Assembly (NCBI GenBank): GCA_036496425.1
Contig: DASXLG010000179.1
Coordinates: 1-34,543 of the forward strand
DNA length: 34,543 nucleotides
Direction of reading: 5' to 3'
From: Terriglobia bacterium
Lineage (GTDB): Bacteria; Acidobacteriota; Terriglobia; 20CM-2-55-15
Positions 5,142 through 34,543 of the stretch are shown one piece after another. The notes below the pieces were generated by a model that was given only the letters and a program-made list of their open reading frames with translations, had not been told where the DNA came from and did not search any database. The translations under genes were made by a program, and so were the position numbers. Positions within the stretch are counted from its first letter, which is position 1; each line of letters begins with the position of its first letter.

Positions 5142-6323
5142 ATGACGACCGCGCCCTTCGGACATTCCATGCTGGATCGCTGGATGCTCGATCCCTCCAT
5201 CACCTATCTCAATCACGGAACCGTCGGCGCGCCGCCGCGGCGCGTGCTGGAGGTCCAGCAGAAGCTGCGCGATGAAATCGAGCGGCAGCCGTCCCACTTC
5301 CTGCTCCGGGAAGTCTCGCCCAAAGGAGTCGGCGTCTGGAAACGTGAGACATCGCGGGTGCGTGATGCGGCGAACGCCGTCGCCGGATTTCTCGGCGCCA
5401 GAGGTGAGGACCTGGTCTTCGTGGACAACACAACTTCGGGTGTCAACGCCGTTCTTCGAAGCTTCGATTTTCGCGAAGGGGATGAGGTCTTAGTTCCGGA
5501 CGCCGCCTACGGCGCCATTCTCTACGCCGCGGAGTACGCGACGCGGGTTCGAGGCGCATGCGTTCGCATCGTGGAATTTCCAAAAATCGTTTTAAGTCCG
5601 GATGAGATCGTTCGGGTTGTCGACGAAGCGATCGGCCCGAAGACGCGCATCCTCATCATCGATCACGTGACCACCGGTACAGCGCTGATCCTGCCGATTG
5701 CGGAAATCGCCGCCCGCTGCCGGAAACGCGGTGTCGCGATTCTCGTCGATGCGGCGCATGCCCCGGGCGCGATTCCGGTCGATATCGCCGCTCTCGGCGT
5801 CGACTGGTACACGGGAAATCTTCATAAGTGGGGCTGGTCGCCGCGAAGCAGCGGCATCCTCTGGGTCAGCCCCGCCCGGCAGTCCTCGCTTCGACCGACG
5901 GTGATTTCGTGGGGACTCGACCAGGGCATGACGAGCGAATTCGACTGGCCGGGAACCCGCGATCCGACTCCGCATCTCGCGGCTCCCGCGGGAATCGCTT
6001 TCATGCGGGAACTCGGCGTGGAGCGCGTTCAACGCTACAACCACGACCTGGCATGGGCCGCGGGCCGGAGGCTGGCAGGACAACTCGGCACGCACCTTCT
6101 CGGACCGCAGGAAATGATCGGCACCATGATCACGCTGCCGCTTCCGCCGCGTTTCGGGTCGACGCCGGAAGAAGCCGCGGTTCTGCGCGACCGGCTGCTC
6201 TTCGAACACCACATCGAAGTGCATGCCGGCGCATTGAACCATCAGGTTTACATTCGCGTGTCGGCGCAGATCTATAACGAGATGGCGGATGTGGAGAGAC
6301 TGGCGGGGGCTTTGGTTAGTTAA
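5142..6323 (+). CDS. Class-V aminotransferase-fold PLP enzyme (isopenicillin N epimerase-like)
   Basis: A 393-aa cytosolic fold-type I PLP enzyme. The phosphate-binding region NTTSGVNAVL is near residue 97. The cofactor aspartate is in VDAAHAPGA (D203), and the Schiff-base lysine is in GNLHKWGW (K229). The arrangement and the start TYLNHGTVGAPPRRV resemble the isopenicillin N epimerase/cysteine desulfurase-like branch, whose members include epimerases, lyases and the ergothioneine lyase EgtE. No cephalosporin or ergothioneine genes are nearby, so the substrate is open. It follows the permease by 39 bp on the same strand. Its stop codon is the first part of a large palindrome shared with the convergent hydrolase gene. 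Confidence 0.88.
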   Translation: MTTAPFGHSMLDRWMLDPSITYLNHGTVGAPPRRVLEVQQKLRDEIERQPSHFLLREVSPKGVGVWKRETSRVRDAANAVAGFLGARGEDLVFVDNTTSGVNAVLRSFDFREGDEVLVPDAAYGAILYAAEYATRVRGACVRIVEFPKIVLSPDEIVRVVDEAIGPKTRILIIDHVTTGTALILPIAEIAARCRKRGVAILVDAAHAPGAIPVDIAALGVDWYTGNLHKWGWSPRSSGILWVSPARQSSLRPTVISWGLDQGMTSEFDWPGTRDPTPHLAAPAGIAFMRELGVERVQRYNHDLAWAAGRRLAGQLGTHLLGPQEMIGTMITLPLPPRFGSTPEEAAVLRDRLLFEHHIEVHAGALNHQVYIRVSAQIYNEMADVERLAGALVS

Positions 6324-6417
6324 GTCCATTGCATCAATGCATCATTTGACGTTTCTTCATTTCTTCAATTGAAGAAATGAACCAACGTCAAATGATGCAT
6401 TGATGCAATGGACTTAA
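6320..6417. terminator. 98-bp nearly perfect palindrome between convergent genes
   Basis: Outer arms 6320-6353 and 6384-6417 are perfectly complementary over 34 bp. Inside, after a 2-nt mismatch on each side, lies a perfect 26-bp palindrome (6356-6381) centred on AATT with no loop. The structure starts at the plus-strand stop (6321-6323) and ends 4 bp before the minus-strand stop (6422-6424). A bidirectional transcription terminator is the simplest role, but it is AT-rich, unusually long and loop-free, so a mobile or structural element is also possible. Confidence 0.75.
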
Positions 6418-9224: not shown

Positions 9225-11615
9225 ATGACCCTTCGAAGGATTTGCTTTGCCGCGGCGGCTGTGCTCGCCGTCCTGTTGGGCTCCACCGCCCTTACGGCGC
9301 AAAACGTGTCGGCCTCGGCGAACGCCAATGTCCAACATGTCACGATCCTGCAAACGACCGACATTCACGATCACGCCAATGGCTCGGACCATGTCGGCCT
9401 TGACGTGAATCCGTTCACGGGCACCGGTTTGACCGGCGCCTATGCGCGCATTGCGAGCTATATCAATCATGTGCGTCTCACGGCCAACCATCCCGTGATC
9501 GTTGTCGATTCAGGCGACTGGACGATGGGTACGATCTACGACCTGATGGTTACGAAGCAGCCGGGGGCATTATTCTTTCTGCAGACAATGCAGTATGACT
9601 GCGTCACGCTGGGCAACCACGAATTTGATTACACCAGCGCCGGCCTGGCGCAAATGCTGGGTGCGGGTCAACGCGCTTTCGGATTCCGGATACCGATCGT
9701 TGCCACAAATATGAATCTCGGCGGGGATGCCGATCTGGCTCCGTTGTTCGGCCCCGGGAAGCTCATCGAGTCGTCTCATATCGACAGTCTGACGAATGGG
9801 CTGCGGGTCGGCTACATCGGGCTCATGGGCAGCAATGCCGCTTCCGATATCGCGGCGGCGGCGCCGGTAAGCTTCTGGGATCCGTCGGCGAATTACGCCG
9901 CCATCCAGGCGCAGGTGGATGCACTGCACAGGCAGGGCGTCCAGATTGTCATTGCGCTTTCCCATTCCGGTACCGACGCCACAGGCACTTCCGGCGAAGA
10001 CGTCGAGCTCGCGATGCACGTGCACGGAATCAATGTTATCGCGTCGGGTCACACGCACACGCCGCTGCCGCACGCTCAAACCGTGGGGAATGGAACCTGG
10101 AACACGTACATCGTAGATGCGGGCTGGGCGGGATCCAATGTCTCGCGCATCGACCTGACTTATCACCCGGCCACTGCGACGACCACGCTCGATGCATCCA
10201 GCAATCCCTTAATGACCGACTCCAGTCTCAAAGCCCTGGGCGTTTTTTTGCCGCTCGATCCATGGATGACGCTGGCGGTCGCTGGTGCGGATCTGGAGCT
10301 CAACACCACGTTGAAATCCTTTTTCGCTCAGACCTTCTCCGACTACAATCCGTTTCGCATCGGCACCGGTATTTATCATCCGGTTGGCACGACGGCGCAG
10401 ACCATGGCCTCTAACTCAACCGGCGTCGTGCCTGCGCCAAACGGCCTCGGTGATCTCGCCGCCGACTCCATTCGCGCTGCCGCCAACAACATCATCGCGC
10501 AAAATCTCGCCGCGACCGGAGGCAACCCGGGCAAAGCCCCGGGATTCGATTTCACGCCGATTCAGGTGGCGGTCGTGCCGACAGGAGCGTTGCGGGGCGC
10601 ATTGCAGGCGGGCGTGCCGCTCAGTTTCACCGATATGTACAGCATCTTGCCGCTCGGCTTCACGCCGGACTCGAGCCAGGCGCTTCCTGCCGGCTATCCA
10701 CTGATATCGACTTATTTCGAACCCGCCGACTTGAAGAAAATGTGCGCTCTGCAGCTCCTGGTGCAGAGCGGTCTGGCGTCCTCCGACGACTACGTGAACA
10801 TTTCCGGACTGCAGTACACACTTAATGCGGGTGGATCATACACGTATTTCAAGTACGCCACTGCGGCCGCGGTCCTGCAGTTAACGAGCGAAAAGGCGGC
10901 GTTCTCCGTTCAGGCCGGTAAAGCGCTGGTTGCTCTGACAACCCTCGGCAGCGATCAGGGCGCCGCGTTGCTTGCAGCATATGCCGCAGGCAATCCATAC
11001 GCGGTGGCGATGGTGAAGCTGAACGACGTTAACCCGGGAAGCGCGCAAATCGCACAGAATCTCGGTACTCTCGGTCAAGTTGCGGCGGCCGCGGCGGCGG
11101 ACAGCGTGAACGGTACCTCAACCCTGACGGCGCTTATCATGTCGACGGCTGTCGCTGCGGTCAACACCGTCGCGGGTTTTGCTCCGGGCGACAGTGCGAA
11201 TATCGGGCCCGCGACCCCGCTCTCATCCAGCGGCCGCGTGCGCGTGGTCCTGGATCTCTATACTCTCCTGCTCGTGAATGCGCTCGGCAGCGAACTGGGC
11301 GTTACCGTCTCGCCATACGCCGCAGCAACCGGAACCGTGGTTTTGTCGGCCGCCACCCTGCCCGCTGTCCTGGCCAACCGGATTGATGCCATGCCCTCCA
11401 TTCCCGGCATTCAGGAGCTGAAGGCATGGATGGCCTTGCTGTACTATGTTGGCTCTCCCCTCAGCGGCAGGATCACGTCGATCTATGCCTCGACCTCCGA
11501 CTTCAGCCAATTCGCGATGTTCGGCAGCGCCGTACGAAACAGGAGCGCCGTATATCCGGTCGCGAGCATCGGGCAGCTTCTGCTCACGGTAGAGAGCCTG
11601 ACGAGCGCCCCGTAA
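9225..11615 (+). CDS. Exported 5'-nucleotidase-like metallophosphoesterase
   Basis: The ATG at 9225 has GAAAGGA 6 bp upstream and starts a signal peptide (ALTAQ cleavage region), giving 796 aa. The N-terminal calcineurin-like domain carries the metal ligands in order: QTTDIHDH (residues 44-50), DSGDWTMGT (95-103), LGNHEFD (129-135), then ALSHSG and SGHTHT. The C-terminal half has the 5'-nucleotidase substrate-binding fold, with NGLGDLAADSIRAAANN and a DMYSILPLG segment. The usual N-G-G-I-R motif of that domain reads PTGALRG, so only the final Arg is retained. Expected role is hydrolysis of nucleotides or cyclic nucleotides in the periplasm for phosphate or nucleoside uptake. The extra ~300 residues at the C-terminus are Ala/Gly-rich and longer than in UshA. 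Confidence 0.87.
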   Translation: MTLRRICFAAAAVLAVLLGSTALTAQNVSASANANVQHVTILQTTDIHDHANGSDHVGLDVNPFTGTGLTGAYARIASYINHVRLTANHPVIVVDSGDWTMGTIYDLMVTKQPGALFFLQTMQYDCVTLGNHEFDYTSAGLAQMLGAGQRAFGFRIPIVATNMNLGGDADLAPLFGPGKLIESSHIDSLTNGLRVGYIGLMGSNAASDIAAAAPVSFWDPSANYAAIQAQVDALHRQGVQIVIALSHSGTDATGTSGEDVELAMHVHGINVIASGHTHTPLPHAQTVGNGTWNTYIVDAGWAGSNVSRIDLTYHPATATTTLDASSNPLMTDSSLKALGVFLPLDPWMTLAVAGADLELNTTLKSFFAQTFSDYNPFRIGTGIYHPVGTTAQTMASNSTGVVPAPNGLGDLAADSIRAAANNIIAQNLAATGGNPGKAPGFDFTPIQVAVVPTGALRGALQAGVPLSFTDMYSILPLGFTPDSSQALPAGYPLISTYFEPADLKKMCALQLLVQSGLASSDDYVNISGLQYTLNAGGSYTYFKYATAAAVLQLTSEKAAFSVQAGKALVALTTLGSDQGAALLAAYAAGNPYAVAMVKLNDVNPGSAQIAQNLGTLGQVAAAAAADSVNGTSTLTALIMSTAVAAVNTVAGFAPGDSANIGPATPLSSSGRVRVVLDLYTLLLVNALGSELGVTVSPYAAATGTVVLSAATLPAVLANRIDAMPSIPGIQELKAWMALLYYVGSPLSGRITSIYASTSDFSQFAMFGSAVRNRSAVYPVASIGQLLLTVESLTSAP

Positions 11616-16111: not shown

Positions 16112-16310
16112 TGTAACCTCCCGAAGGAATCCCAATATACTGCAGCATCGCATAAACGGTTTTGTAATCTTTGTGCCTTTTGTGGCCATTCTTCTTCCCT
16201 CCGGTGGAATCCCCGGACCCTGCCGGACTCGAATTCACGCGCCAAAGTGTTGGTAGACCGGATGCAGCCTTCTCTGACGTCTCTCAAAATTCCACCCAGG
16301 AGATAACTGA

Positions 16311-16997
16311 ATGGCGAGAAATTACGAACGCGACGAGCGTGAAGGTTGGCGGCGTCAACAACAGAACCGTGACTACGATTATGGCTGGGGCCACCGGCAA
16401 GAGGACCGCAACTGGCGAGAAGATCAGGAGATGGCTGAAGGTAACCGCGGGCAAGGTATGCCGCGTGGTTGGGATCGGGGCAATGAGGGCCGTCCAGCAT
16501 GGCAAGGCGGGCAAGGCGGCGGCTGGCAGGGTGACCGCTGGCAGGGCGGCGACTATCAAAGTTCCCGCGGTAACGACAATCGCCAGTGGGAAGGCGATCG
16601 CGAAATGGAATCGCGCGCCGGACGAAACGACTGGAATCGGGGAATGGGTGGAGGCTGGAGTCCGAATGCGGAACGCTGGAAACAGGGGAATTGGAATCAA
16701 GGCATGCACGGCCAACATGCCGGCCGCGGGCCCCGCAGTTACAAGCGCCAGGACGACCGCATCGAAGAAGACATCAACGAACAACTGACCCGGCATTCGA
16801 TGATCGATGCCACCGACATCGAAGTCAGCGTCCAAAACGGCGAAGTAACCATGCGAGGCCATGTCGAAAATCGTGAAGCCAAACGCATGGCGGAAGACAT
16901 TGCGGAATCCTGTTTTGGTGTGAAGGAAGTCAACAACCAGATCAAGATCAAGCACCACGGCGAAGGGGAAGAGCGGCGGGAGCGAAGAGCGAGCTGA
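16311..16997 (+). CDS. BON-domain protein with Arg/Gly/Trp-rich N-terminal half
   Basis: 228 aa, no signal peptide, AGGAG 7 bp before ATG 16311. Residues 149-213 form a single BON domain (RIEEDINEQL, ATDIEVSVQNGEVTMRGHV, AEDIAESCFGVKEVNNQIKI), a module associated with membrane or phospholipid binding and osmotic-shock proteins. Residues 1-145 are low-complexity with repeats of W-x-G-x, R-D and G-N, rich in Arg, Gly, Trp, Asp and Gln, and look intrinsically disordered. Disordered RG/W-rich tails can bind nucleic acid or form condensates; applying that here is speculation. It stands alone: the upstream gene is divergent and the next gene is separated by a palindrome. Confidence 0.85.
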   Translation: MARNYERDEREGWRRQQQNRDYDYGWGHRQEDRNWREDQEMAEGNRGQGMPRGWDRGNEGRPAWQGGQGGGWQGDRWQGGDYQSSRGNDNRQWEGDREMESRAGRNDWNRGMGGGWSPNAERWKQGNWNQGMHGQHAGRGPRSYKRQDDRIEEDINEQLTRHSMIDATDIEVSVQNGEVTMRGHVENREAKRMAEDIAESCFGVKEVNNQIKIKHHGEGEERRERRAS

Positions 16998-26516: not shown

Positions 26517-27797
26517 CTACAGCCGGATGGTTTCGTCGCGTCCGGGCCCCGTGGATACCATGCTTATCGGAACGCCGAGATATTCGGAGAGAAACTTCAA
26601 GTAGTCTTGAGCAACCGCCGGAAGCTGGGACCATTCTTTGATTCCGGCGAGCGGCGTCTTCCAGCCCCGAATGTTCTTATAAACCGGCTGAACTTCGGCA
26701 AGGATTGCCACGTCGGCGGGAAATTCCTTCAATACGGATCCCTTGTACTTGTAGTCGACGCAGAAGGGGATTTCGTCGAACGTGTCGAGCACATCGATCT
26801 TGGTGACGACAATCGAATCCAGGGCATTGATCATCGTTGCGTATCGCGCGGCCGGCCCGTCGAACCATCCGCAGCGCCGCGGACGCCCGGTTGTGGAGCC
26901 GTATTCATTACCCCGGGTTCGAAGCTGTTCGCCGGCGCCCTCCGGAGACTCCGTGGGAAATGGACCGGCGCCGACGCGCGTGGTATACGCTTTCGAGACT
27001 CCGGTCACACTGTGCACATATTTCGGGGACACGCCAAGCCCTGTGGCGACGCCGCCTGCGGCCGCACTCGACGAGGTGACGAAGGGAAAGGTGCCGTGGT
27101 CGACATCGAGCAGCGTGCCCTGAGCCCCTTCGAAGAGGATCGCTTTGCCGGCACGGATCATCTCGTTGAGCATGACGGAGGTATCGACAACGAACGGTTT
27201 TATTCTGGCGCCATACTCCGCATACGAATCGCAGATCGGTTCCGGATCGATGGTCTGCGGATATTTCAGCGCCTCGAGCTCGCGGTTCTTCTCGGCAACC
27301 TGTGCCCGGATCTTTTCCGGAAGCGTCTCGGGGCTGATCAGATCGCAAACGCGCAGCCCGCGGCGGCCCATTTTGTCTTCGTAGGCGGGCCCGATGCCGC
27401 GAGAGGTCGTACCGATACGCCGTTCGCCGAGTTGCTTTTCGATCGCAGCTTCGAGCACCCGGTGATAGGGAAGAATGACGTGACAGCGATTGGAGACATA
27501 AAGTCGTCCTTCGACGGAGACATCCATCGCCCTTTGTATCGCCTGCGATTCTTCGATCAAGGCGAGCGGGTCGAGCACGACCCCGCCTCCAATCACGCAT
27601 TTCACATTGGGCTGGAAGATGCCGGAAGGAATCAGGTGAAGGACATGCCGCCGGTTGCCGAAACTGACGGTGTGTCCGGCATTGTGGCCGCCCTGATAGC
27701 GCGCGACGCAGTCGTACGCCTCCGAAAGGATGTCGACAATCTTACCCTTTCCCTCGTCGCCCCACTGGGCGCCTACAACTGCGAGATTTCTGCTCAC
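26517..27797 (-). CDS. purA: Adenylosuccinate synthetase
   Basis: 426 aa, the usual length. It catalyses the GTP-dependent joining of IMP and aspartate, the first committed step of AMP synthesis. The N-terminal G-Q-W-G-D-E-G-K-G-K variant reads AQWGDEGKGK (residues 10-19). The catalytic His region is GGHNAGHTV, the conserved GTTSRGIGPAYEDK follows near residue 135, and the C-terminal region has VSTGPGRDETI. Translation starts at a GTG that shares its first G with the trxA TAG stop (TAGTG), so the two are translationally coupled. Linking a housekeeping purine gene to thioredoxin is unusual, and both may be expressed with the small protein upstream. Confidence 0.97.
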   Translation of the reverse strand: MSRNLAVVGAQWGDEGKGKIVDILSEAYDCVARYQGGHNAGHTVSFGNRRHVLHLIPSGIFQPNVKCVIGGGVVLDPLALIEESQAIQRAMDVSVEGRLYVSNRCHVILPYHRVLEAAIEKQLGERRIGTTSRGIGPAYEDKMGRRGLRVCDLISPETLPEKIRAQVAEKNRELEALKYPQTIDPEPICDSYAEYGARIKPFVVDTSVMLNEMIRAGKAILFEGAQGTLLDVDHGTFPFVTSSSAAAGGVATGLGVSPKYVHSVTGVSKAYTTRVGAGPFPTESPEGAGEQLRTRGNEYGSTTGRPRRCGWFDGPAARYATMINALDSIVVTKIDVLDTFDEIPFCVDYKYKGSVLKEFPADVAILAEVQPVYKNIRGWKTPLAGIKEWSQLPAVAQDYLKFLSEYLGVPISMVSTGPGRDETIRL

Positions 27798-28123
27798 TAC
27801 AGATGTTTATCGAGAGCTTTGGTGATCACGCTCTTGTCGACGGCCCCGACGATCTGTTCCTTCACCTGGCCGTCTTTGATCACGAGCAGCGTTGGAATAC
27901 CCCGGATATTGAACTTCGCGGCCGTTGAGCCGTTGGCATCGACATCGAGTTTGCCGACTTTGACGCGGCCTTTATATTCTTCGGCGATCGCGTCAACGGT
28001 GGGAGCGAGAGCACGGCATGGCGCACACCACGCTGCCCAGAAGTCCACCAGGACTGGTGTGTTTGCCTTGACCACTTCGGCTTCGAAGTTGGTGTCCGTG
28101 ATCTCAATCGTGTTAGCGCCCAT
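27797..28123 (-). CDS. trxA: Thioredoxin
   Basis: 108 aa, the complete thioredoxin fold. The active site WCAPC is at residues 32-36; the common form is WCGPC, and an Ala at this position occurs in some thioredoxins and may shift the redox potential. The cis-Pro segment GIPTLLVIKDG and the preceding DVDANGSTAAKFNIR are standard. GGAGG lies 5 bp upstream of ATG 28123. It is the second gene of the small protein-trxA-purA series, with an 18-bp gap upstream and a 1-bp overlap downstream. It is a cytosolic disulfide reductase partner for thioredoxin reductase, which is not in the window. Confidence 0.97.
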   Translation of the reverse strand: MGANTIEITDTNFEAEVVKANTPVLVDFWAAWCAPCRALAPTVDAIAEEYKGRVKVGKLDVDANGSTAAKFNIRGIPTLLVIKDGQVKEQIVGAVDKSVITKALDKHL

Positions 28124-28141
28124 GTATCCTCCAGAAAAATT

Positions 28142-28324
28142 CTACACTAACACGTCAATCTTCGGTGGCTGCTCCTGCTCGATTTCTCCGCTCGGAGTGT
28201 AAATGGGCGCCGATGCGATCCGCTCGCGCTTAGGCTGCGGCGGCTTGCGTTGCTGTTGCTTTCGTTCGTCATGCTGCGAGGACCCGGCGATATTCGCGAA
28301 GTTGCTCAGTGGCATGATCTCCAT
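28142..28324 (-). CDS. Small hypothetical protein (60 aa) upstream of trxA
   Basis: ATG 28324 has AGGAG 6 bp upstream, and the frame ends 18 bp before trxA. The protein starts MEIMPLSNFANIAGSS and continues with a strongly charged middle rich in Lys, Arg, Gln and Pro, then ends in an acidic PPKIDVLV tail. It has no Cys and no hydrophobic segment, and is probably disordered. The longer frame from 28489 would overlap the divergent methyltransferase gene. The spacing and Shine-Dalgarno argue that it is expressed as the first gene of the trxA operon; the role is unknown. Confidence 0.6.
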   Translation of the reverse strand: MEIMPLSNFANIAGSSQHDERKQQQRKPPQPKRERIASAPIYTPSGEIEQEQPPKIDVLV

Positions 28325-28388
28325 AGAGTTCTCCTGATGGGTATATCGGTCTGGGAAGCTTTCGACTTTATGGGAAAATGAATTTGAC

Positions 28389-29033
28389 ATGAATTTCAAG
28401 CATCGCGAAGATCTGACGGAGATCATGGACGACGTCAACCGTCCGGAGCACGAGTTCCAGCTCGCATATCGGGAGCTGAAGGTCATCAACGAACGGCTCG
28501 GCGGAATCCGCGCGATCGAGCGCTTTTTGCCTCAGGTTCCCAATCTGCTCATCCTGGATGTGGCTGCCGGCGGCTGCGACGTCAGCGACGCGTTGCTTGA
28601 TCGTATGCGCTGCCGGGTTGTCGGTTTGGATTTAAATGCCGGCGGATTGAAGCTTGCGAGGCGCACCTGGCCGGTTGCGGGAGATGCGTTAAAACTGCCC
28701 TTTGCGGATAAGACCTTTGATGTCGTGATGTCGTCGCTGTTCTTTCACCATGTCTCCAATGATGATTGTCCCCGGGTGCTGGCCGAAATGTGGCGCGTGT
28801 GCCGGCGGCGCGTTATCGTGAACGATTTGCATCGGCACGCCGCGGCGTATTACTCGTTTCGATTGCTCGCCGCGCTCTTCAGTAAGAGCGAAATGGTGAA
28901 ACATGACGGTCCGGTGTCGGTACGGCGGGCTTTTCATCCTCAAGACTTATTAAAGTTCTCGGAGCGTGCGGGAGTGCCGGCGCGCGTTCATCGCAGTTTC
29001 CCGTTTCGCCTGGTCCTGGTGGCCGACCGATGA
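28389..29033 (+). CDS. Class I SAM-dependent methyltransferase
   Basis: 214 aa. Motif I is LILDVAAGGCDVSDAL near residue 53, followed by VVGLDLN (motif II), GDALKLPFADKTFDVVMSSL (motif III/IV) and HHVSN. The start MNFKHREDLTEIMDDVNRPE and the order of motifs resemble UbiE/COQ5-like enzymes that follow type III polyketide synthases, but no such synthase is in the window. It overlaps the FAD gene by ATGA at 29030-29033, so the two are translationally coupled. It is divergent from the trxA operon, with 64 bp between the starts. The methyl acceptor is unknown. Confidence 0.87.
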   Translation: MNFKHREDLTEIMDDVNRPEHEFQLAYRELKVINERLGGIRAIERFLPQVPNLLILDVAAGGCDVSDALLDRMRCRVVGLDLNAGGLKLARRTWPVAGDALKLPFADKTFDVVMSSLFFHHVSNDDCPRVLAEMWRVCRRRVIVNDLHRHAAAYYSFRLLAALFSKSEMVKHDGPVSVRRAFHPQDLLKFSERAGVPARVHRSFPFRLVLVADR

Positions 29034-29977
29034 TCCAGCGGGATGTTGTCGTGATTGGCGGCAGCCTGGCCGGTTCGGCATGTGCGCGTGAGCTGGTGCG
29101 ATTGGGTGTGGACGCCGTCGCTCTGGAGCGTGACCGGTTTCCGCGGCACAAGGTGTGCGGTGGATTTCTATCGCCCGGCGCTGTTGCCGGCCTGAAGGCG
29201 CTCGATATTCTGGAGGATGTCCGGCGCGCGGGGGCGGTGGAAGTGATGTCGGCGCGAGTCCGGGCCGGCTCGGCCGATGTGGAGATTCCATTCGAGCGGC
29301 CGGGATTGGGAATCTCGCGCAGCACGCTGGATGACATCGTGGCGCGGTGCGCCGCGGTGGAGCAAGGTCATGCCGTGCAGCACGTCCGCCGTTCAGGGCG
29401 GGGCTTCGTTGTGGACGATGTGTCGTGCCGCGTCGTGATTGACGCAGCAGGGAAGCTCAGCCGCTTCACAAAACGGCGCACTGAAGATGAATTCGGCATT
29501 CAATATTTTGAAGGAGGCGGGCATGGGCCGGTGCTCGACTTCTGGTTCCTTGATGACGCATACGGCGGAGGCGTGTCGGTGGACGGAGGCCGGTCGAATT
29601 TTTCTTTTCTTATCCGGAAAGACGCATTGCGGAAGTACACCGATCGGCCGGGCTGCCTTGTAACGGGCCCTCTCGCTTACGAGCGGGTTCCGGGTGATTT
29701 TATCGCCATCGGAGACGCCTCCGGGATGGTGGATCCGTTCTGCGGTGAAGGCATGCGGCACGCTCTTGAAAGCGGTATCCTTGCGGCGCGTGTCGTCGCG
29801 GCCGGGATTCGGCGCGGCGCCCGGTATGAAGAAATGAAATGGGAGTATGAAGCGCGATGGCAACGCCGCTGGGCCGTGCGAAGGGAAATCGGCGCAGTGC
29901 TGCGCCGTTGGCGGGGATGGTTCGGGCCCGCGCTGCGTGTTGCGCCGGCCTGGCTGGTAAACCGGATCTGGGACTGA
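29030..29977 (+). CDS. FAD-dependent oxidoreductase, geranylgeranyl-reductase/UbiH-like
   Basis: 315 aa. The N-terminal Rossmann motif reads VVVIGGSLAGSACARELVRLG, and a conserved PRHKVCGG follows near residue 38, typical of the geranylgeranyl reductase family. The later FAD-binding segment is FIAIGDASGMVDPFCGEGM, with the usual GD and helix-capping Gly. Such enzymes reduce isoprenoid double bonds or hydroxylate polyketide-derived rings. Pairing with an overlapping methyltransferase is a recurring motif in specialised-metabolite clusters. The domain is slightly short (normally ~370-400 aa), lacking part of the C-terminal substrate domain. The C-terminal ~45 residues are Arg/Trp-rich. Confidence 0.87.
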   Translation: MIQRDVVVIGGSLAGSACARELVRLGVDAVALERDRFPRHKVCGGFLSPGAVAGLKALDILEDVRRAGAVEVMSARVRAGSADVEIPFERPGLGISRSTLDDIVARCAAVEQGHAVQHVRRSGRGFVVDDVSCRVVIDAAGKLSRFTKRRTEDEFGIQYFEGGGHGPVLDFWFLDDAYGGGVSVDGGRSNFSFLIRKDALRKYTDRPGCLVTGPLAYERVPGDFIAIGDASGMVDPFCGEGMRHALESGILAARVVAAGIRRGARYEEMKWEYEARWQRRWAVRREIGAVLRRWRGWFGPALRVAPAWLVNRIWD

Positions 29978-29998: not shown

Positions 29999-30136
29999 GT
30001 GAGCGACCCCCTGCCGTGCGCTTCGCGCCCGGCTCTCCCCCTGTATCAGGGGGAGAGTCGTGTTGAGTTAAGCGGGTTGCTGTCCCCCTGATACAGGGGG
30101 ACAGCCGTGCCGGAGGCACGGCAGGGGGTCGCTCAC
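29999..30136. repeat. Intergenic repeat with inverted copies and GC hairpins
   Basis: GTGAGCGACCCCCTGCCGTG at the left reads again, inverted, at the right end. Each copy contains a hairpin: CTCTCCCCCTG-TAT-CAGGGGGAGAG on the left and a perfect one built on GTCCCCCTGATACAGGGGGAC on the right. It fills most of the gap between the FAD and glycosyltransferase genes. Its transcription could terminate upstream messages or be processed. Confidence 0.75.
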
Positions 30137-30166: not shown

Positions 30167-31291
30167 ATGTACATTCTCGCCATCATCGCCATTCTGCAAG
30201 GCCTGCTGACGCTCGTCGACGGCATCCGCAGCGCGCGCCATATGCGGACGTACCGTCCGGGGCGGGCCAATGGCCATCGGCGTGTCGTGGTGTTTTGCCC
30301 ATGCAAGGGTATCGATCAGGGATTCGACAAGAATATTCGATCGATCCTGAACCAGGACTATCGCAACTATGATGTGCAGTTTATCGTCGAAGCCGACGAC
30401 GATCCCGCTTATTCGGCTCTGAAGCGCCTGGGCGCGAATATCCTCGTCGCGGGCCGGGCATCCGACTGCGGGCAGAAAGTTCACAACCTTGCCTACGCCG
30501 TGGCGCGCAGAAGCGACGCCGGGATTTATGTGTTCTGCGATTCCGACGTGCGATTTCCCCACGACTGGCTGTCCCATCTCATCGCGCCACTCGATGCCAC
30601 CAACGTCACGACCGGCTACCGATGGTACGTTGCCACCCGCTTCCATTTTCCGACGCTGCTGCGTTCCGCCTGGAACGCGTCGTCCGTCTCAATTCTCGGC
30701 GATCACGGCCGGAATTTCGCCTGGGGCGGTTCCACGGCGTTATATCGCTCGACCTTCGAGCGTCTGAAGATTCTCGACGCCTGGCGGGGATCGATCAGCG
30801 ACGATTACGCCGTCACACGCGCCGCCCAGCGTCATGCGTCGAAAATCGTCTTTGTGCCGCAGTGTCTGGTCCCGTCCTACGGGGAATGCAGCTTCAGTGA
30901 AGCGCTGGAATTCACGACGCGACAGGTCGTTATTACCCGGGTTTACCATCCCGGGCTCTGGCGCGCCGGGTTCCTCGGACATGCGATCTTCAACGCCGCA
31001 TTCTGGATTCTTCCGTTCTTTCATCCGTGGCTCTGGCTCGCGCTTTACAGCCTTTCGGCCACCAGGGCCGCGATCCGGCAACGCGCCATCCGGACGGCGC
31101 TTGCGCCGGAGGTCTGGTCCGGTCACGATTGGTTCTATATTCTGTGTTCGCCGCTGGTGGCTCTGTTGTATCTGTACAACATGGTCGCTTCGGCGCTGGG
31201 GAACGAGATCGTATGGCGGCAGATCCACTACAAACTCATTTCTCCCAACGAGACACGCGTGTCTGGCGGATCCGCTGCAAGCGAAAGCTGA
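30167..31291 (+). CDS. Membrane-associated family 2/21-like glycosyltransferase
   Basis: With ATG 30167 the protein is 374 aa and starts with a membrane helix (MYILAIIAILQGLLTLVDGI). The longer start at 30107 lies inside the repeat. The catalytic GT-A core shows FCPCKGID, then SDCGQK near residue 99, then the metal-binding D-x-D as FCDSDVRF (125-127), then SDDYAV and an R-rich TTRQVVITRVY where GT21 enzymes have (Q/R)xxRW. Two membrane segments follow (FNAAFWILPFFHPWLW and CSPLVALLYLYNM). This plan fits ceramide-glucosyltransferase/HpnI-like enzymes acting on a lipid acceptor. The last 79 bp overlap the radical SAM start in the +1 frame. Confidence 0.85.
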   Translation: MYILAIIAILQGLLTLVDGIRSARHMRTYRPGRANGHRRVVVFCPCKGIDQGFDKNIRSILNQDYRNYDVQFIVEADDDPAYSALKRLGANILVAGRASDCGQKVHNLAYAVARRSDAGIYVFCDSDVRFPHDWLSHLIAPLDATNVTTGYRWYVATRFHFPTLLRSAWNASSVSILGDHGRNFAWGGSTALYRSTFERLKILDAWRGSISDDYAVTRAAQRHASKIVFVPQCLVPSYGECSFSEALEFTTRQVVITRVYHPGLWRAGFLGHAIFNAAFWILPFFHPWLWLALYSLSATRAAIRQRAIRTALAPEVWSGHDWFYILCSPLVALLYLYNMVASALGNEIVWRQIHYKLISPNETRVSGGSAASES

Positions 31292-31335
31292 ACACGATGA
31301 TTCGAAATTGCCTCCGTGAAGCGGGACGCTGCTGA
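31213..31335 (+). pseudogene. Truncated 5' end of a radical SAM gene (left copy)
   Basis: An ATG at 31213 opens a frame whose first ~29 codons (MAADPLQTHFSQRDTRVWRI through KLNTMI) match the start of the radical SAM gene at 33841. After 31298 the sequence diverges and the frame ends at 31333-31335, before any iron-sulfur motif. It is the left junction of the inserted region. Confidence 0.75.
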
Positions 31336-31416
31336 CGGAATGGTAGGAATTGTTCAACAGGGATCGCCGTCGATGGCGTGGTGGGTTTTCCGCGCATATC
31401 GGGCATTGGACTAAAC

Positions 31417-31815
31417 CTGTTCACATGTGACGCGACAGGCTTCCGCATCAGCGAAGCCGTCCTCTTGAAGCCTGGCCATATCGACTCCGGCCGAATGGTG
31501 ATTCGCGTCGAATAAGGCAAAGGTCAGAAGGATCGCTATGTGATGTTGTCACCACGCCTGCTGGAGACATCCGGCCCTGGTGGCGTACCGCCAGGCCGCA
31601 AGTCTGGCTTTTTCCGGGCCAGCGCGGCGACAAACCGATCACGCGCCATGCGGTCGAGAAAGCATGTGCCATGAGGCGCACCTCCGTTCGAATATTTCTA
31701 AACCCATCACGCCCCACTGCATGCGGCTCATGCGTTTCGTTCCATATGCTGAAAAACGGCACCGCCGTCCGTACCATCCAGCTCCTGTTGGGGCATCGCA
31801 GTATGCATTCCCAGG
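31417..31815 (+). pseudogene. Decayed tyrosine recombinase (XerD/IS91-associated type)
   Basis: Pieces of one integrase can be read in order on the plus strand: CDATGFRISEAVLLKPGHID, RMVIRVE, an in-frame TAA (probably from CAA), GKGQKDRYVMLSPRLLE, then a frameshift to RPQVWLFPGQRGDKPITRHA, another shift to AHLRSNISKPITPHCMR, and a third to TAVRTIQLLLGHRSM. The Arg of the GxRxSE box, an HxxR-like box and LGHRS are visible, but the catalytic Tyr is lost and the N-terminal domain is absent. The nearest known type is the integrase family that accompanies IS91-like elements. It is inactive. Confidence 0.8.
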
Positions 31816-31914
31816 AAGGGGAATGCATTGATCTGGGCCAACATGCGCGAGTGCGGATCGAAGGAGCGGCCCGATCCAGAATGCGTACGAGCGGCGCTGT
31901 AAGGCCTGGTCCCG

Positions 31915-32040
31915 ATGATCGCCCTATCGACGGGAACGCAGATCCGGATTGCCGCCGGGGTAACGGATCTGCGGCGAGGATTCACGGGGCTGAGCACGCA
32001 GGTGCAGACGGTTCTGAAAGAAAGTCCGTTTTCGGGCCGA
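31915..32040 (+). pseudogene. Truncated IS66-type TnpB (Orf2) fragment
   Basis: ATG 31915 starts a 42-codon match to the N-terminus of IS66 family TnpB: MIALSTGTQIRIAAGVTDLR, then RGFTGLSTQVQTVLKESPFS. Functional TnpB is about 115 aa; here the match stops at GR, 3 bp before the stop codon of the convergent Fic gene, so the Fic segment interrupted or replaced it. No IS66 transposase (TnpC) is present. Confidence 0.75.
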
Positions 32041-32043
32041 AGC

Positions 32044-33372
32044 CTACTCGGACTTTTCCAGAATCGCGGCTTCGACGCCTTCGGGATAGAGGTTTGGAAA
32101 GTAATAAGGCACGGCTTTCGCAGGGACGGCCAGGCGGATTGGACCCTTTGCGGTCGTCGGTGAGACCAGGCCTTGCTTCAAGGTTTCGTCAAGAATGCGG
32201 CGGGCCGTTCGCTCCGGCTTGCCTGTAATTCGAGGAACCTCACCGCGGGCAAGTTCGCCGTGTGTCAGCACTTCAACAAGAATGTATTTCGCTTCTTCAG
32301 GCAATCCAAACGCTGAGCGTCGCTGCACGTATTTCGCAATACGGTGTTCCAGCCCGGGGAGATCTAATAGCCTGGTCATGAACCGAACCTGATCCAAAGC
32401 CGTTTGCAGGAAGAACTGACAGAATATCGCCAATCCAGATTCGGATAGGTTTCCGCGACCATCGAGATCGCCTTGCCTCGGCTGATCGGCGCCGACCAGA
32501 GCCGCAATATATTGGTCCTTATATCGACAGAGCCCCCTGGTGACAGTCCACAGACCATGTGAATCCAATCCAACTCGAATCATGTACGCGTTCGTAAACA
32601 GGCGCGTCACGCGCCCATTTCCATCGATGAATGGATGGATCCAAGCCAGCCGGTGGTGTGCCGCGGCGCATGCGATCATCTTCGTGAGACTCTTTAGACT
32701 CCAGGGTTCATATATTTCCTGGAAGCGATCCAAAAATGATTGAAGATGTTTGTGATGCGGCGCAACATGCTGACCAACTTTTACATTCCTGTGTCGCAAC
32801 TCGCCCGGCTCAAACCGCTCCGTGTTGCCGTCGCTATCAGTTACGACGCGAAACTCGCCAGGCATTCGAGAATAGAATTCATAATGGACCCACCGAAGGA
32901 AATCCGTCGAACAGATCGCTAAATCCTCTTCTGCCCGCAGCCTATCTTCCAAAAGGATTTGTACTTCAATGTGCGCCTGACTCTCGAGCTGCAAAGCCCT
33001 CTTCTTAGGCTCTGCCGAGTAGTCTTTGTGCAAGGCTTTTTCAATATCCAACGGAAGAGTGTGATGCCCTTCTATTAAATTCGAATAATAACTGTTCATC
33101 TGGCGCAACAAAGCGACTACTGCCGAACGCGTTATGGGATGGAGTGAGCCTGCTAAAGCGCTCGCCTCCCGGACAAGCCTTAAGGCCAGTTCCTCTAACG
33201 TGCCGTCGCTTCCTCTTGGAAGCATCGGCTCCAATTCCCGTGGATGAGTGTAAAGTTGGTCCTCTGTAAGCTCGATTGCCGGTCTTGACGCTAAACTTGG
33301 CCGATCCTTAGCCGCTTCTTTAAGCCGCTCAATGGCCGGTTTCTTGGCCGGTTTATTCCGCTTAACACTCAT
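32044..33372 (-). CDS. Fic-domain protein with N-terminal inhibitory motif and wHTH-like C-terminus
   Basis: 442 aa. The Fic active site is HPFIDGNGRVTR at residues 246-257, matching HPFx(D/E)GNGRxxR exactly, so it should transfer AMP or a related group from a nucleotide to protein side chains. Upstream, S97-N-L-I-E101-G fits the inhibitory motif (S/T)xxxE(G/N) that autoinhibits class II Fic proteins. The C-terminal ~100 residues (HGELARGEVPRITGKPERTA then LVSPTTAKGP) look like a winged helix. The N-terminal 60 residues are Lys/Pro-rich. The gene has visibly lower GC than its neighbours, sits between mobile-element relics and lacks a good Shine-Dalgarno, all of which suggest horizontal acquisition. 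No toxin/antitoxin partner is next to it. Confidence 0.9.
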   Translation of the reverse strand: MSVKRNKPAKKPAIERLKEAAKDRPSLASRPAIELTEDQLYTHPRELEPMLPRGSDGTLEELALRLVREASALAGSLHPITRSAVVALLRQMNSYYSNLIEGHHTLPLDIEKALHKDYSAEPKKRALQLESQAHIEVQILLEDRLRAEEDLAICSTDFLRWVHYEFYSRMPGEFRVVTDSDGNTERFEPGELRHRNVKVGQHVAPHHKHLQSFLDRFQEIYEPWSLKSLTKMIACAAAHHRLAWIHPFIDGNGRVTRLFTNAYMIRVGLDSHGLWTVTRGLCRYKDQYIAALVGADQPRQGDLDGRGNLSESGLAIFCQFFLQTALDQVRFMTRLLDLPGLEHRIAKYVQRRSAFGLPEEAKYILVEVLTHGELARGEVPRITGKPERTARRILDETLKQGLVSPTTAKGPIRLAVPAKAVPYYFPNLYPEGVEAAILEKSE

Positions 33373-33479
33373 ATTATTTTCAATTAGTTGCGCCGCTCAA
33401 TGTGCCAATACTACACCCACTTCAGGCCGATCCATAGAAGTATAATCCGGGGCCAATTTGGCCGATCTTCTGGCCGGTC
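33299..33479. repeat. Six GGCCGRTY words around the Fic start
   Basis: GGCCGATC or GGCCGGTY occurs at 33299, 33334, 33346, 33425, 33460 and 33472, all in the same orientation. The spacing is 35 and 12 bp in each set of three, and the sets are 126 bp apart. Three copies are in the coding N-terminus and three in the upstream region. The word GCCGCTCAATG also occurs twice (33324 and 33392). This could be an operator array for autoregulation or a diverged local duplication. The rest of the 33373-33667 gap shows no gene. Confidence 0.55.
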
Positions 33480-33667
33480 TTTTGACTGTAAGGATAACAG
33501 AGGTCTATTTCGACCAGCTACTCAGGACCCAACAACGCTTCTTCCAGGACACGTTGATTTGCGCAGCTGGAAATGGAAGTTGCTTGGCTCAAGTCGTTTA
33601 GTTGAGATCGTATCTGGTAAAGGATTCTTCAGTTGAATCCGAACATTCCGGCTTTGACGCGTCTCTG

Positions 33668-33919
33668 TCGATTTACGGCCTTTCGGCCACCAGGGCTGCT
33701 ATGAGGCAGCGCGCCTTCCGGACGTCGCTTTCGCCGGAGGCCTTGTCCGGTCACGATTGATTCTATATCCTGTGTTCGCCTGTGGTGGCTCTGTTGTATC
33801 TGTACAACATGGTTGCTTCGGCGCTGAGAACCGAGATCATATGGCGGCAGATACACTACAAACTCATATCTCCCGACGAGACACGCGTGTCTGGCGGATT
33901 CCCCGCAAGCGGAAGCTGA
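33668..33919 (+). pseudogene. Glycosyltransferase 3' fragment (right copy)
   Basis: This stretch aligns without gaps to 31041-31291, the end of the intact glycosyltransferase gene (about 27 mismatches in 255 bp including the shared overlap). In the glycosyltransferase frame it reads YGLSATRAAMRQRAFRTSLS, then SGHD followed by TGA where the intact gene has TGG (Trp), then FYILCSPVVALLYLYNMVAS through a final TGA at 33917-33919. It lacks the rest of the gene and is not functional as a glycosyltransferase. Confidence 0.85.
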
Positions 33920-34543
33920 ACACGATCATCTTTTTCGTCACCTCGCGGTGCAATGCGACGTGCGAGACGTGTTTCTATTGGGACGAGCTGAATCAGCAGG
34001 GAGATCTGTCATGGGACGAGATTGTCAAGCTGTCCGGCACAACGCCGCCATTTACGGACCTGTGGTTCAGTGGCGGCGAGCCGACGCTGCGAAAGGATCT
34101 TCCCGAAATCATCGATCTCTTTGTCCGGAATAACGGTGTACGGTACATCAATCTGCCGACCAATGGCCTGAAACCGAATCGGCTTTATGAAATCGCGGAG
34201 CATGCGCTTACGGCGAATCCGGGCCTCGAACTTCACGTCAACATCGCGCTGGATGGGCTGCGCGAGTCGCACGATTTCATGCGGGGCGTGCCGGGTAACT
34301 TCGAAAAGGCGTTGGAAAGCGGACGCTTACTGCGGAAACTGAAGCCGGCGTTCGGCTTGCGCCTGATCGTAAACATCAACACCGTCATCACTCGCGACAA
34401 CCTCGATGAGATTCTTCCGCTGGCCGAACTCATCTGTGCGGAGAGGATTGCCGACGGCCACTACTTCAACCTGATTCGCGGAGATGCCAAGGACCCGGGT
34501 CTCAAGGAGGTTCAGCGTGAAAAGCTCCGGTCCATTTATAGAG
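33841..34543 (+). CDS. Radical SAM protein, C-terminus cut by window edge
   Basis: Open from ATG 33841 to the window end (234 codons). The [4Fe-4S] cluster motif C-x3-C-x2-C is CNATCETC (C37, C41, C44), followed by FYW, and the SAM-binding GGE motif is LWFSGGEPT near residue 78. The start lies inside the glycosyltransferase tail and overlaps it by 79 bp. The same geometry is kept in the left copy, which supports the start. These proteins generate a deoxyadenosyl radical to modify small molecules, lipids or peptides; the subfamily is not recognisable from this part. It probably works with the methyltransferase, FAD enzyme and glycosyltransferase in one pathway. Confidence 0.88.
   Translation, partial: MAADTLQTHISRRDTRVWRIPRKRKLNTIIFFVTSRCNATCETCFYWDELNQQGDLSWDEIVKLSGTTPPFTDLWFSGGEPTLRKDLPEIIDLFVRNNGVRYINLPTNGLKPNRLYEIAEHALTANPGLELHVNIALDGLRESHDFMRGVPGNFEKALESGRLLRKLKPAFGLRLIVNINTVITRDNLDEILPLAELICAERIADGHYFNLIRGDAKDPGLKEVQREKLRSIYR

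What the first reader, a model, noticed from the sequence alone, without database searches (positions are those of the whole stretch)
31041..33926. Duplicated glycosyltransferase-tail/radical-SAM-head flanks a mobile segment
About 258 bp at 31041-31298 recur at 33668-33926 with roughly 27 mismatches and no indels. The left copy ends an intact glycosyltransferase and a radical SAM start of ~29 codons; the right copy has a nonsense mutation in the glycosyltransferase frame and leads into an open radical SAM gene. At 89% identity this is too diverged for a target-site duplication. I infer an old tandem duplication of a GT-rSAM module that collapsed to one functional gene of each kind, with mobile DNA between them. 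This may have uncoupled the pair's expression.
Basis: partly seen in the sequence, partly recalled or inferred. Interest (0 to 1): 0.75.

Follow-up and report, generated by a model that had tools for sequence, protein, structure and literature searches.

The report
Duplicated gene junction flanking mobile debris
In a soil acidobacterium, two neighbouring genes that probably overlap were pushed apart by 2.4 kb of mobile-element debris, and both survived because the stretch where they meet is present on both sides of the insert; a related genus shows the same kind of event at the same spot.

Summary
Window 31041-31301 and 33669-33929 are a 261-bp direct repeat with 29 mismatches and no indels: the 3' end of a glycosyltransferase (GT) gene plus the 5' end of a radical-SAM gene (rSAM). 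The left copy ends the intact GT. The right copy has a nonsense codon in the GT frame and leads into an rSAM that crosses the contig end and is followed by panB on contig C73. Relatives G001 and G002 have GT-rSAM directly adjacent, so 2,367 bp of mobile debris was inserted (IS91-type integrase remnant, IS66 TnpB remnant, intact Fic gene). Sister-genus genome G006 has its own GT-tail copies around a different insert, with homology ending at the same CTGAACACG motif, and one copy is recombinant. G005 and G008 lost rSAM with breaks starting at about the same point. The junction is a recurrent breakpoint. Whether a duplicated overlap merely permits insertion, or an integrating element brings the GT tail (as e14 does at icd), is unresolved.

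The parts
28389..29033 (+). SAM-dependent methyltransferase, first gene of the cluster here
   Evidence: Pfam Methyltransf_11 1.8e-16; NCBIfam PRK06202 family below cut-off; synteny in relatives
29030..29977 (+). FAD oxidoreductase related to the geranylgeranyl reductase family
   Evidence: FAD_binding_3 5e-7; TIGR02032 6.4e-27, below cut-off
30167..31291 (+). Intact glycosyltransferase (GT family 2/21, distantly HpnI-like). Start ATG 30167 chosen by comparison with relatives; the listed ORF starts at 30107
   Evidence: Glyco_transf_21 7.4e-12; TIGR03472 6.7e-30, below cut-off; 45-71% identical homologues in the family
31041..31301 (+). Left copy of the repeat: GT 3' end plus vestigial rSAM head (ATG 31213)
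31302..33668 (.). Inserted mosaic segment, 2367 bp, absent from G001 and G002
31416..31801 (+). Broken tyrosine integrase of the kind encoded beside IS91 transposases (stop codon and frameshifts)
   Evidence: Phage_integrase 3.7e-15 on the piecewise read-through; 65-69% DNA identity to plasmid integrases, two of which were checked and sit next to IS91 transposase genes
31915..32060 (+). Truncated IS66 TnpB
   Evidence: PF05717 1.1e-6 over profile positions 2-47 of 101
32044..33372 (-). Intact Fic-domain protein, SoFic-like, with motif HPFIDGNGR
   Evidence: Fic 8.9e-15; PADLOC SoFic 3.3e-27; PDB Fic proteins
33669..33929 (+). Right copy of the repeat; nonsense codon in the GT frame at 33758-33760; carries the presumed rSAM start ATG 33841
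33841..34543 (+). Radical-SAM gene, cut by the contig end; the rest is at G000 C73:1-426, followed by panB
   Evidence: Radical_SAM 1.7e-14; C73 continuation and panB

Best explanation
The ancestor carried GT and rSAM back to back, probably overlapping by 79 nt (rSAM ATG inside the GT tail). A duplication of just the junction (about 261 bp: GT tail plus first rSAM codons) arose together with, or before, insertion of mobile DNA between the copies. The left copy keeps the GT complete and the right copy keeps the rSAM start, so both genes survive. Each copy is then free to decay in the frame it no longer needs. If the overlap is real, an insertion at the junction that does not duplicate the overlap would break one of the genes, which would explain why insertions kept here come with a duplicated GT tail. 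Shown: the repeat, the adjacency in relatives, the insert contents, the open GT and rSAM frames, the separate G006 case. Inferred: the duplication step and its order relative to the insertion, the rSAM start codon, and the selective reason.
For: Uninterrupted GT-rSAM in G001 and G002, with rSAM followed by panB in G001 and GT/rSAM frames overlapping in G002. G000 rSAM continues on C73 into panB, as in G001. Repeat ends coincide with insert ends; no second GT 5' part or first rSAM body in the insert. G006: GT plus two further GT-tail copies around a different insert, homology of copy 2 again ending at CTGAACACG, copy 2 a recombinant (9/60 differences to copy 1 in its 5' part, 0/123 in its 3' part). 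Tree: L and R are sisters (98), the G006 copies group together (100). In the overlap, two L changes are silent in GT but alter the rSAM frame, and two R changes are silent in the rSAM frame but alter GT (small numbers). No second case of this kind in 712 kb of this genome, so it looks locus-specific.
Against: The shared right boundary just past the GT stop in G000 and G006, and the similar left breakpoint of the rSAM losses in G005 and G008, is more precise than a random local duplication predicts. Changes on the L branch do not clearly show purifying selection on GT (about 6 nonsynonymous to 3 synonymous). A junction duplication without an insert was never seen.
Confidence: 0.52

Rival explanations
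1. One reading: a whole GT-rSAM module was duplicated in tandem; later the first rSAM body and the second GT body were deleted while mobile DNA moved in.
For: Gives the observed order and one working gene of each kind; a single deletion accompanying IS insertion would suffice. The uninterrupted pair exists in relatives.
Against: No remnant of either deleted body; no tandem modules seen in the relatives searched; the deletion would have to end ~10 nt past the GT stop here and ~5 nt past it in G006.
Confidence: 0.2
2. e14-like integration or uptake from a relative: the mobile DNA brought its own GT tail, which replaced the host tail (left copy), while the native tail stayed in front of rSAM (right copy). 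The 11% divergence then predates the event.
For: Same layout as e14 at icd, where the prophage supplies the 3' end and leaves a 163-bp duplicated pseudo-icd on the far side (PMC6379469). Recurrence at one boundary in two genera. Relaxed-looking substitutions in L.
Against: The only integrase is a broken IS91-type remnant; the left ends of the repeats differ between G000 and G006; no terminal inverted repeats; L and R are each other's closest relatives and about equally far from other species.
Confidence: 0.22
3. Assembly artefact from mixed strains in a metagenome.
For: A draft in 407 contigs with 4.2% contamination; the contig ends inside rSAM.
Against: No shared sequence at the insert/right-copy joint that could misjoin; a parallel structure in an independent assembly; synteny continues as expected into panB.
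Confidence: 0.05

Closest known systems
e14 prophage at E. coli icd (duplicated 163-bp gene 3' end, pseudo-icd on the far side; PMC6379469)
   Same: Gene 3' tail present on both sides of inserted mobile DNA; the proximal gene is intact and the distal tail is a pseudogene
   Different: No complete integrase or prophage here; the far copy is still the 5' end of the next gene; the left boundaries differ between genomes
Partial tandem duplication with IS insertion and divergence
   Same: Direct repeat of a gene segment flanking IS debris; copies diverge
   Different: The duplicated piece is the probable overlap of two genes, and the locus is hit repeatedly in one family
IS target-site duplication
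   Same: Direct repeat flanking inserted DNA
   Different: 261 bp is far longer than target duplications of IS families (own knowledge), and the insert is a mosaic without terminal inverted repeats

Membership tests
e14/icd-type integration into a gene 3' end | Gene 3' end duplicated on both sides of the insert, proximal gene open | tested here: met
e14/icd-type integration into a gene 3' end | Element encodes an integrase of its own | tested here: not met
   Only a truncated, frameshifted IS91-type integrase remnant
e14/icd-type integration into a gene 3' end | Common crossover core at the start of the repeat in independent cases | tested here: not met
   Left ends differ between G000 and G006
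Tandem GT-rSAM module duplication | Traces of second GT body or first rSAM body, or tandem modules in relatives | tested here: not met
Tandem GT-rSAM module duplication | Uninterrupted GT-rSAM pair in relatives | tested here: met
   G001, G002; also G056
Intact composite or simple transposon | Terminal inverted repeats and full transposase | tested here: not met
   only remnants of an IS91-type integrase and IS66 TnpB
Fic AMP-transferase (SoFic type) | Fic domain with HxFxDGNGR motif | tested here: met
   Motif in the translation. Activity not tested

The most novel reading that the evidence does not exclude
The GT/rSAM junction is a true recurrent target: DNA that enters at CTGAACACG in this family brings or makes a copy of the GT tail each time, either by an undescribed integration route or because only insertions that duplicate an overlap are compatible with keeping two overlapping genes.
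Probability: 0.2. Interest if true: 0.55.

Novelty: new variant of a known kind. Interest (0 to 1): 0.36.

Why it matters
It gives a concrete route by which overlapping, probably co-translated genes can be separated without loss of either: the overlap is present twice, DNA sits between, and each copy decays in one frame. Two cases at one junction in two genera, plus losses with a similar left breakpoint, make it testable with more genomes of this acidobacterial family.

Tried and rejected
Remnant of the rSAM 3' end after the left copy in G000: suggested by eye, not significant. Extension of GT homology left of the right copy: p 0.01 against shuffles but 0.2 against genomic controls, rejected. 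IS91 GAAC target specificity: homology runs past GAAC to ACACG in all cases, so not supported. Terminal inverted repeats, RNA families and tRNA genes as att sites: none. Foreign origin of the rSAM side judged from gene-by-gene identity: no discontinuity. Other direct repeats of similar size in 712 kb of the genome: the one closest in size and identity is a pair of small-protein paralogues. New promoter for rSAM: none predicted upstream of it. Across the class the rSAM homologues whose surroundings were read are not next to this GT, so the adjacency is not universal. A script error left one neighbourhood listing empty; only the tblastn part of that call is used.

Full report
What is there. Self-comparison of the window finds one long direct repeat at this place, 31041-31301 and 33669-33929, 261 bp, 29 mismatches, no indels. 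The own genome holds no third copy. The left copy is the end of an open glycosyltransferase (GT; distant similarity to HpnI, below the curated cut-off) and stops 10 nt past the GT stop codon. The right copy has TGG to TGA at 33758 in the GT frame, and its other frame runs into a radical-SAM gene. Mismatches are spread over the whole 261 bp. Neither end shows further homology above genomic controls.

The rest of the locus. Contig C179 ends inside rSAM. The remaining rSAM codons and panB, panC and a menaquinone gene lie at the start of contig C73, the order seen in relative G001. So rSAM looks complete, apart from a gap of about one codon at the contig break. Between the copies lie a broken tyrosine integrase with plasmid homologues (two checked) that sit beside IS91 transposases, a truncated IS66 TnpB, and an intact Fic protein on the minus strand related to SoFic, together 2,367 bp. 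A piece of about 60 bp near the left edge (31339-31402) recurs at two other places in the genome.

Relatives. Named records among them are gp5 Acidobacteria metagenome assemblies. In the same genus, G001 and G002 have methyltransferase-FAD-GT-rSAM without insert; in G002 the GT and rSAM frames overlap, and in G001 the overlap is replaced by a short hairpin-bearing spacer with a possible new GTG start. G003 and G004 have GT directly followed by panB. G005 has lost rSAM: the GT tail runs to TTGAACACG and shortly afterwards come 21 bp identical to the rSAM 3' end (E 5e-7). G008 breaks shortly after the same motif. In G006, a different genus, the GT sits at a contig end, and a second contig carries two further GT-tail copies: copy 2 ends at CTGAACACG and is followed by an SMP-30 gene and a glyoxalase gene, and copy 3 leads into rSAM. 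Copies 2 and 3 share their left boundary; copy 2 differs from copy 1 at 9 of 60 sites in its 5' part and at 0 of 123 in its 3' part, which indicates recombination between tails. G009, same genus as G006, has a short GT-tail fragment in front of the same SMP-30 gene. Across the class, rSAM homologues are present in 28 of 121 genomes, and the eleven neighbourhoods read hold no such GT; G056 in another family does have the pair side by side.

Timing. L and R are each other's nearest relatives (support 98) with branches of 0.053 and 0.072; the G006 tails form their own group (100). L-R differs at 12 of 83 GT third positions, L-G005 at 34 of 83. The simplest reading is two separate duplications, each younger than the split of the sampled species. 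One older duplication kept similar by gene conversion cannot be excluded, given the recombinant copy in G006.

How it most likely works. If rSAM starts at the ATG inside the GT tail (31213 in L, 33841 in R), the genes overlapped by 79 nt. Foreign DNA placed at such a junction would break one gene unless the overlap is present twice. The arrangement fits that rule: L serves GT, R serves rSAM. Within the overlap, two L changes are silent for GT but alter the rSAM frame, and two R changes are silent for rSAM but alter GT. The numbers are small. The start codon, the order of duplication and insertion, and the selective reason are inference.

Alternatives. A whole-module duplication would give the same final order but left no trace and has no parallel in the relatives read. 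An e14-like integration, in which the incoming element supplies the GT 3' end and leaves the native tail as a pseudo-copy on the far side, has the same layout (icd, 163 bp; PMC6379469) and would explain the recurrent right boundary, but no integrase survives and the left boundaries differ. Assembly error is unlikely because a second independent assembly shows the same kind of structure.

Verdict. The repeated use of one junction in one family is the interesting part; the case in this window on its own is a modest structural curiosity.

Noticed in passing
window 27797-28389: A FabF-like ketosynthase sits upstream of the methyltransferase in G001, G002, G003, G004 and G006 but is missing here; the likely orthologue (81% identical) lies on contig C356 of the same genome, so the cluster seems split in G000.
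   Followed up: partly
window 30030-30115: Palindromic repeat-like DNA (CTCCCCCTGATACAGGGGGA) between the FAD gene and GT; a hairpin also sits in the GT-rSAM spacer of G001, and hairpin-rich DNA follows GT in G005.
   Followed up: no
window 6320-6417: Nearly perfect 49-nt inverted repeat with no loop between two genes.
   Followed up: no
window 31339-31402: Dispersed short repeat (GGTAGGAA...CGATGGCGTGGTGGG), also at C309:12105 and C133:36467; nature unknown.
   Followed up: partly
L119 (G000 C13) 9734-10320 and 16178-16762: Two 125-aa small-protein paralogues (MSEITQAQFLQRYGNLMVQIWG...), possibly RiPP precursors, flank an asparagine-synthase-like gene and others.
   Followed up: no
window 31251-31264 and 33879-33892: Perfect 14-bp palindrome AGACACGCGTGTCT inside both repeat copies; may only reflect the GT codons there.
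   Followed up: no
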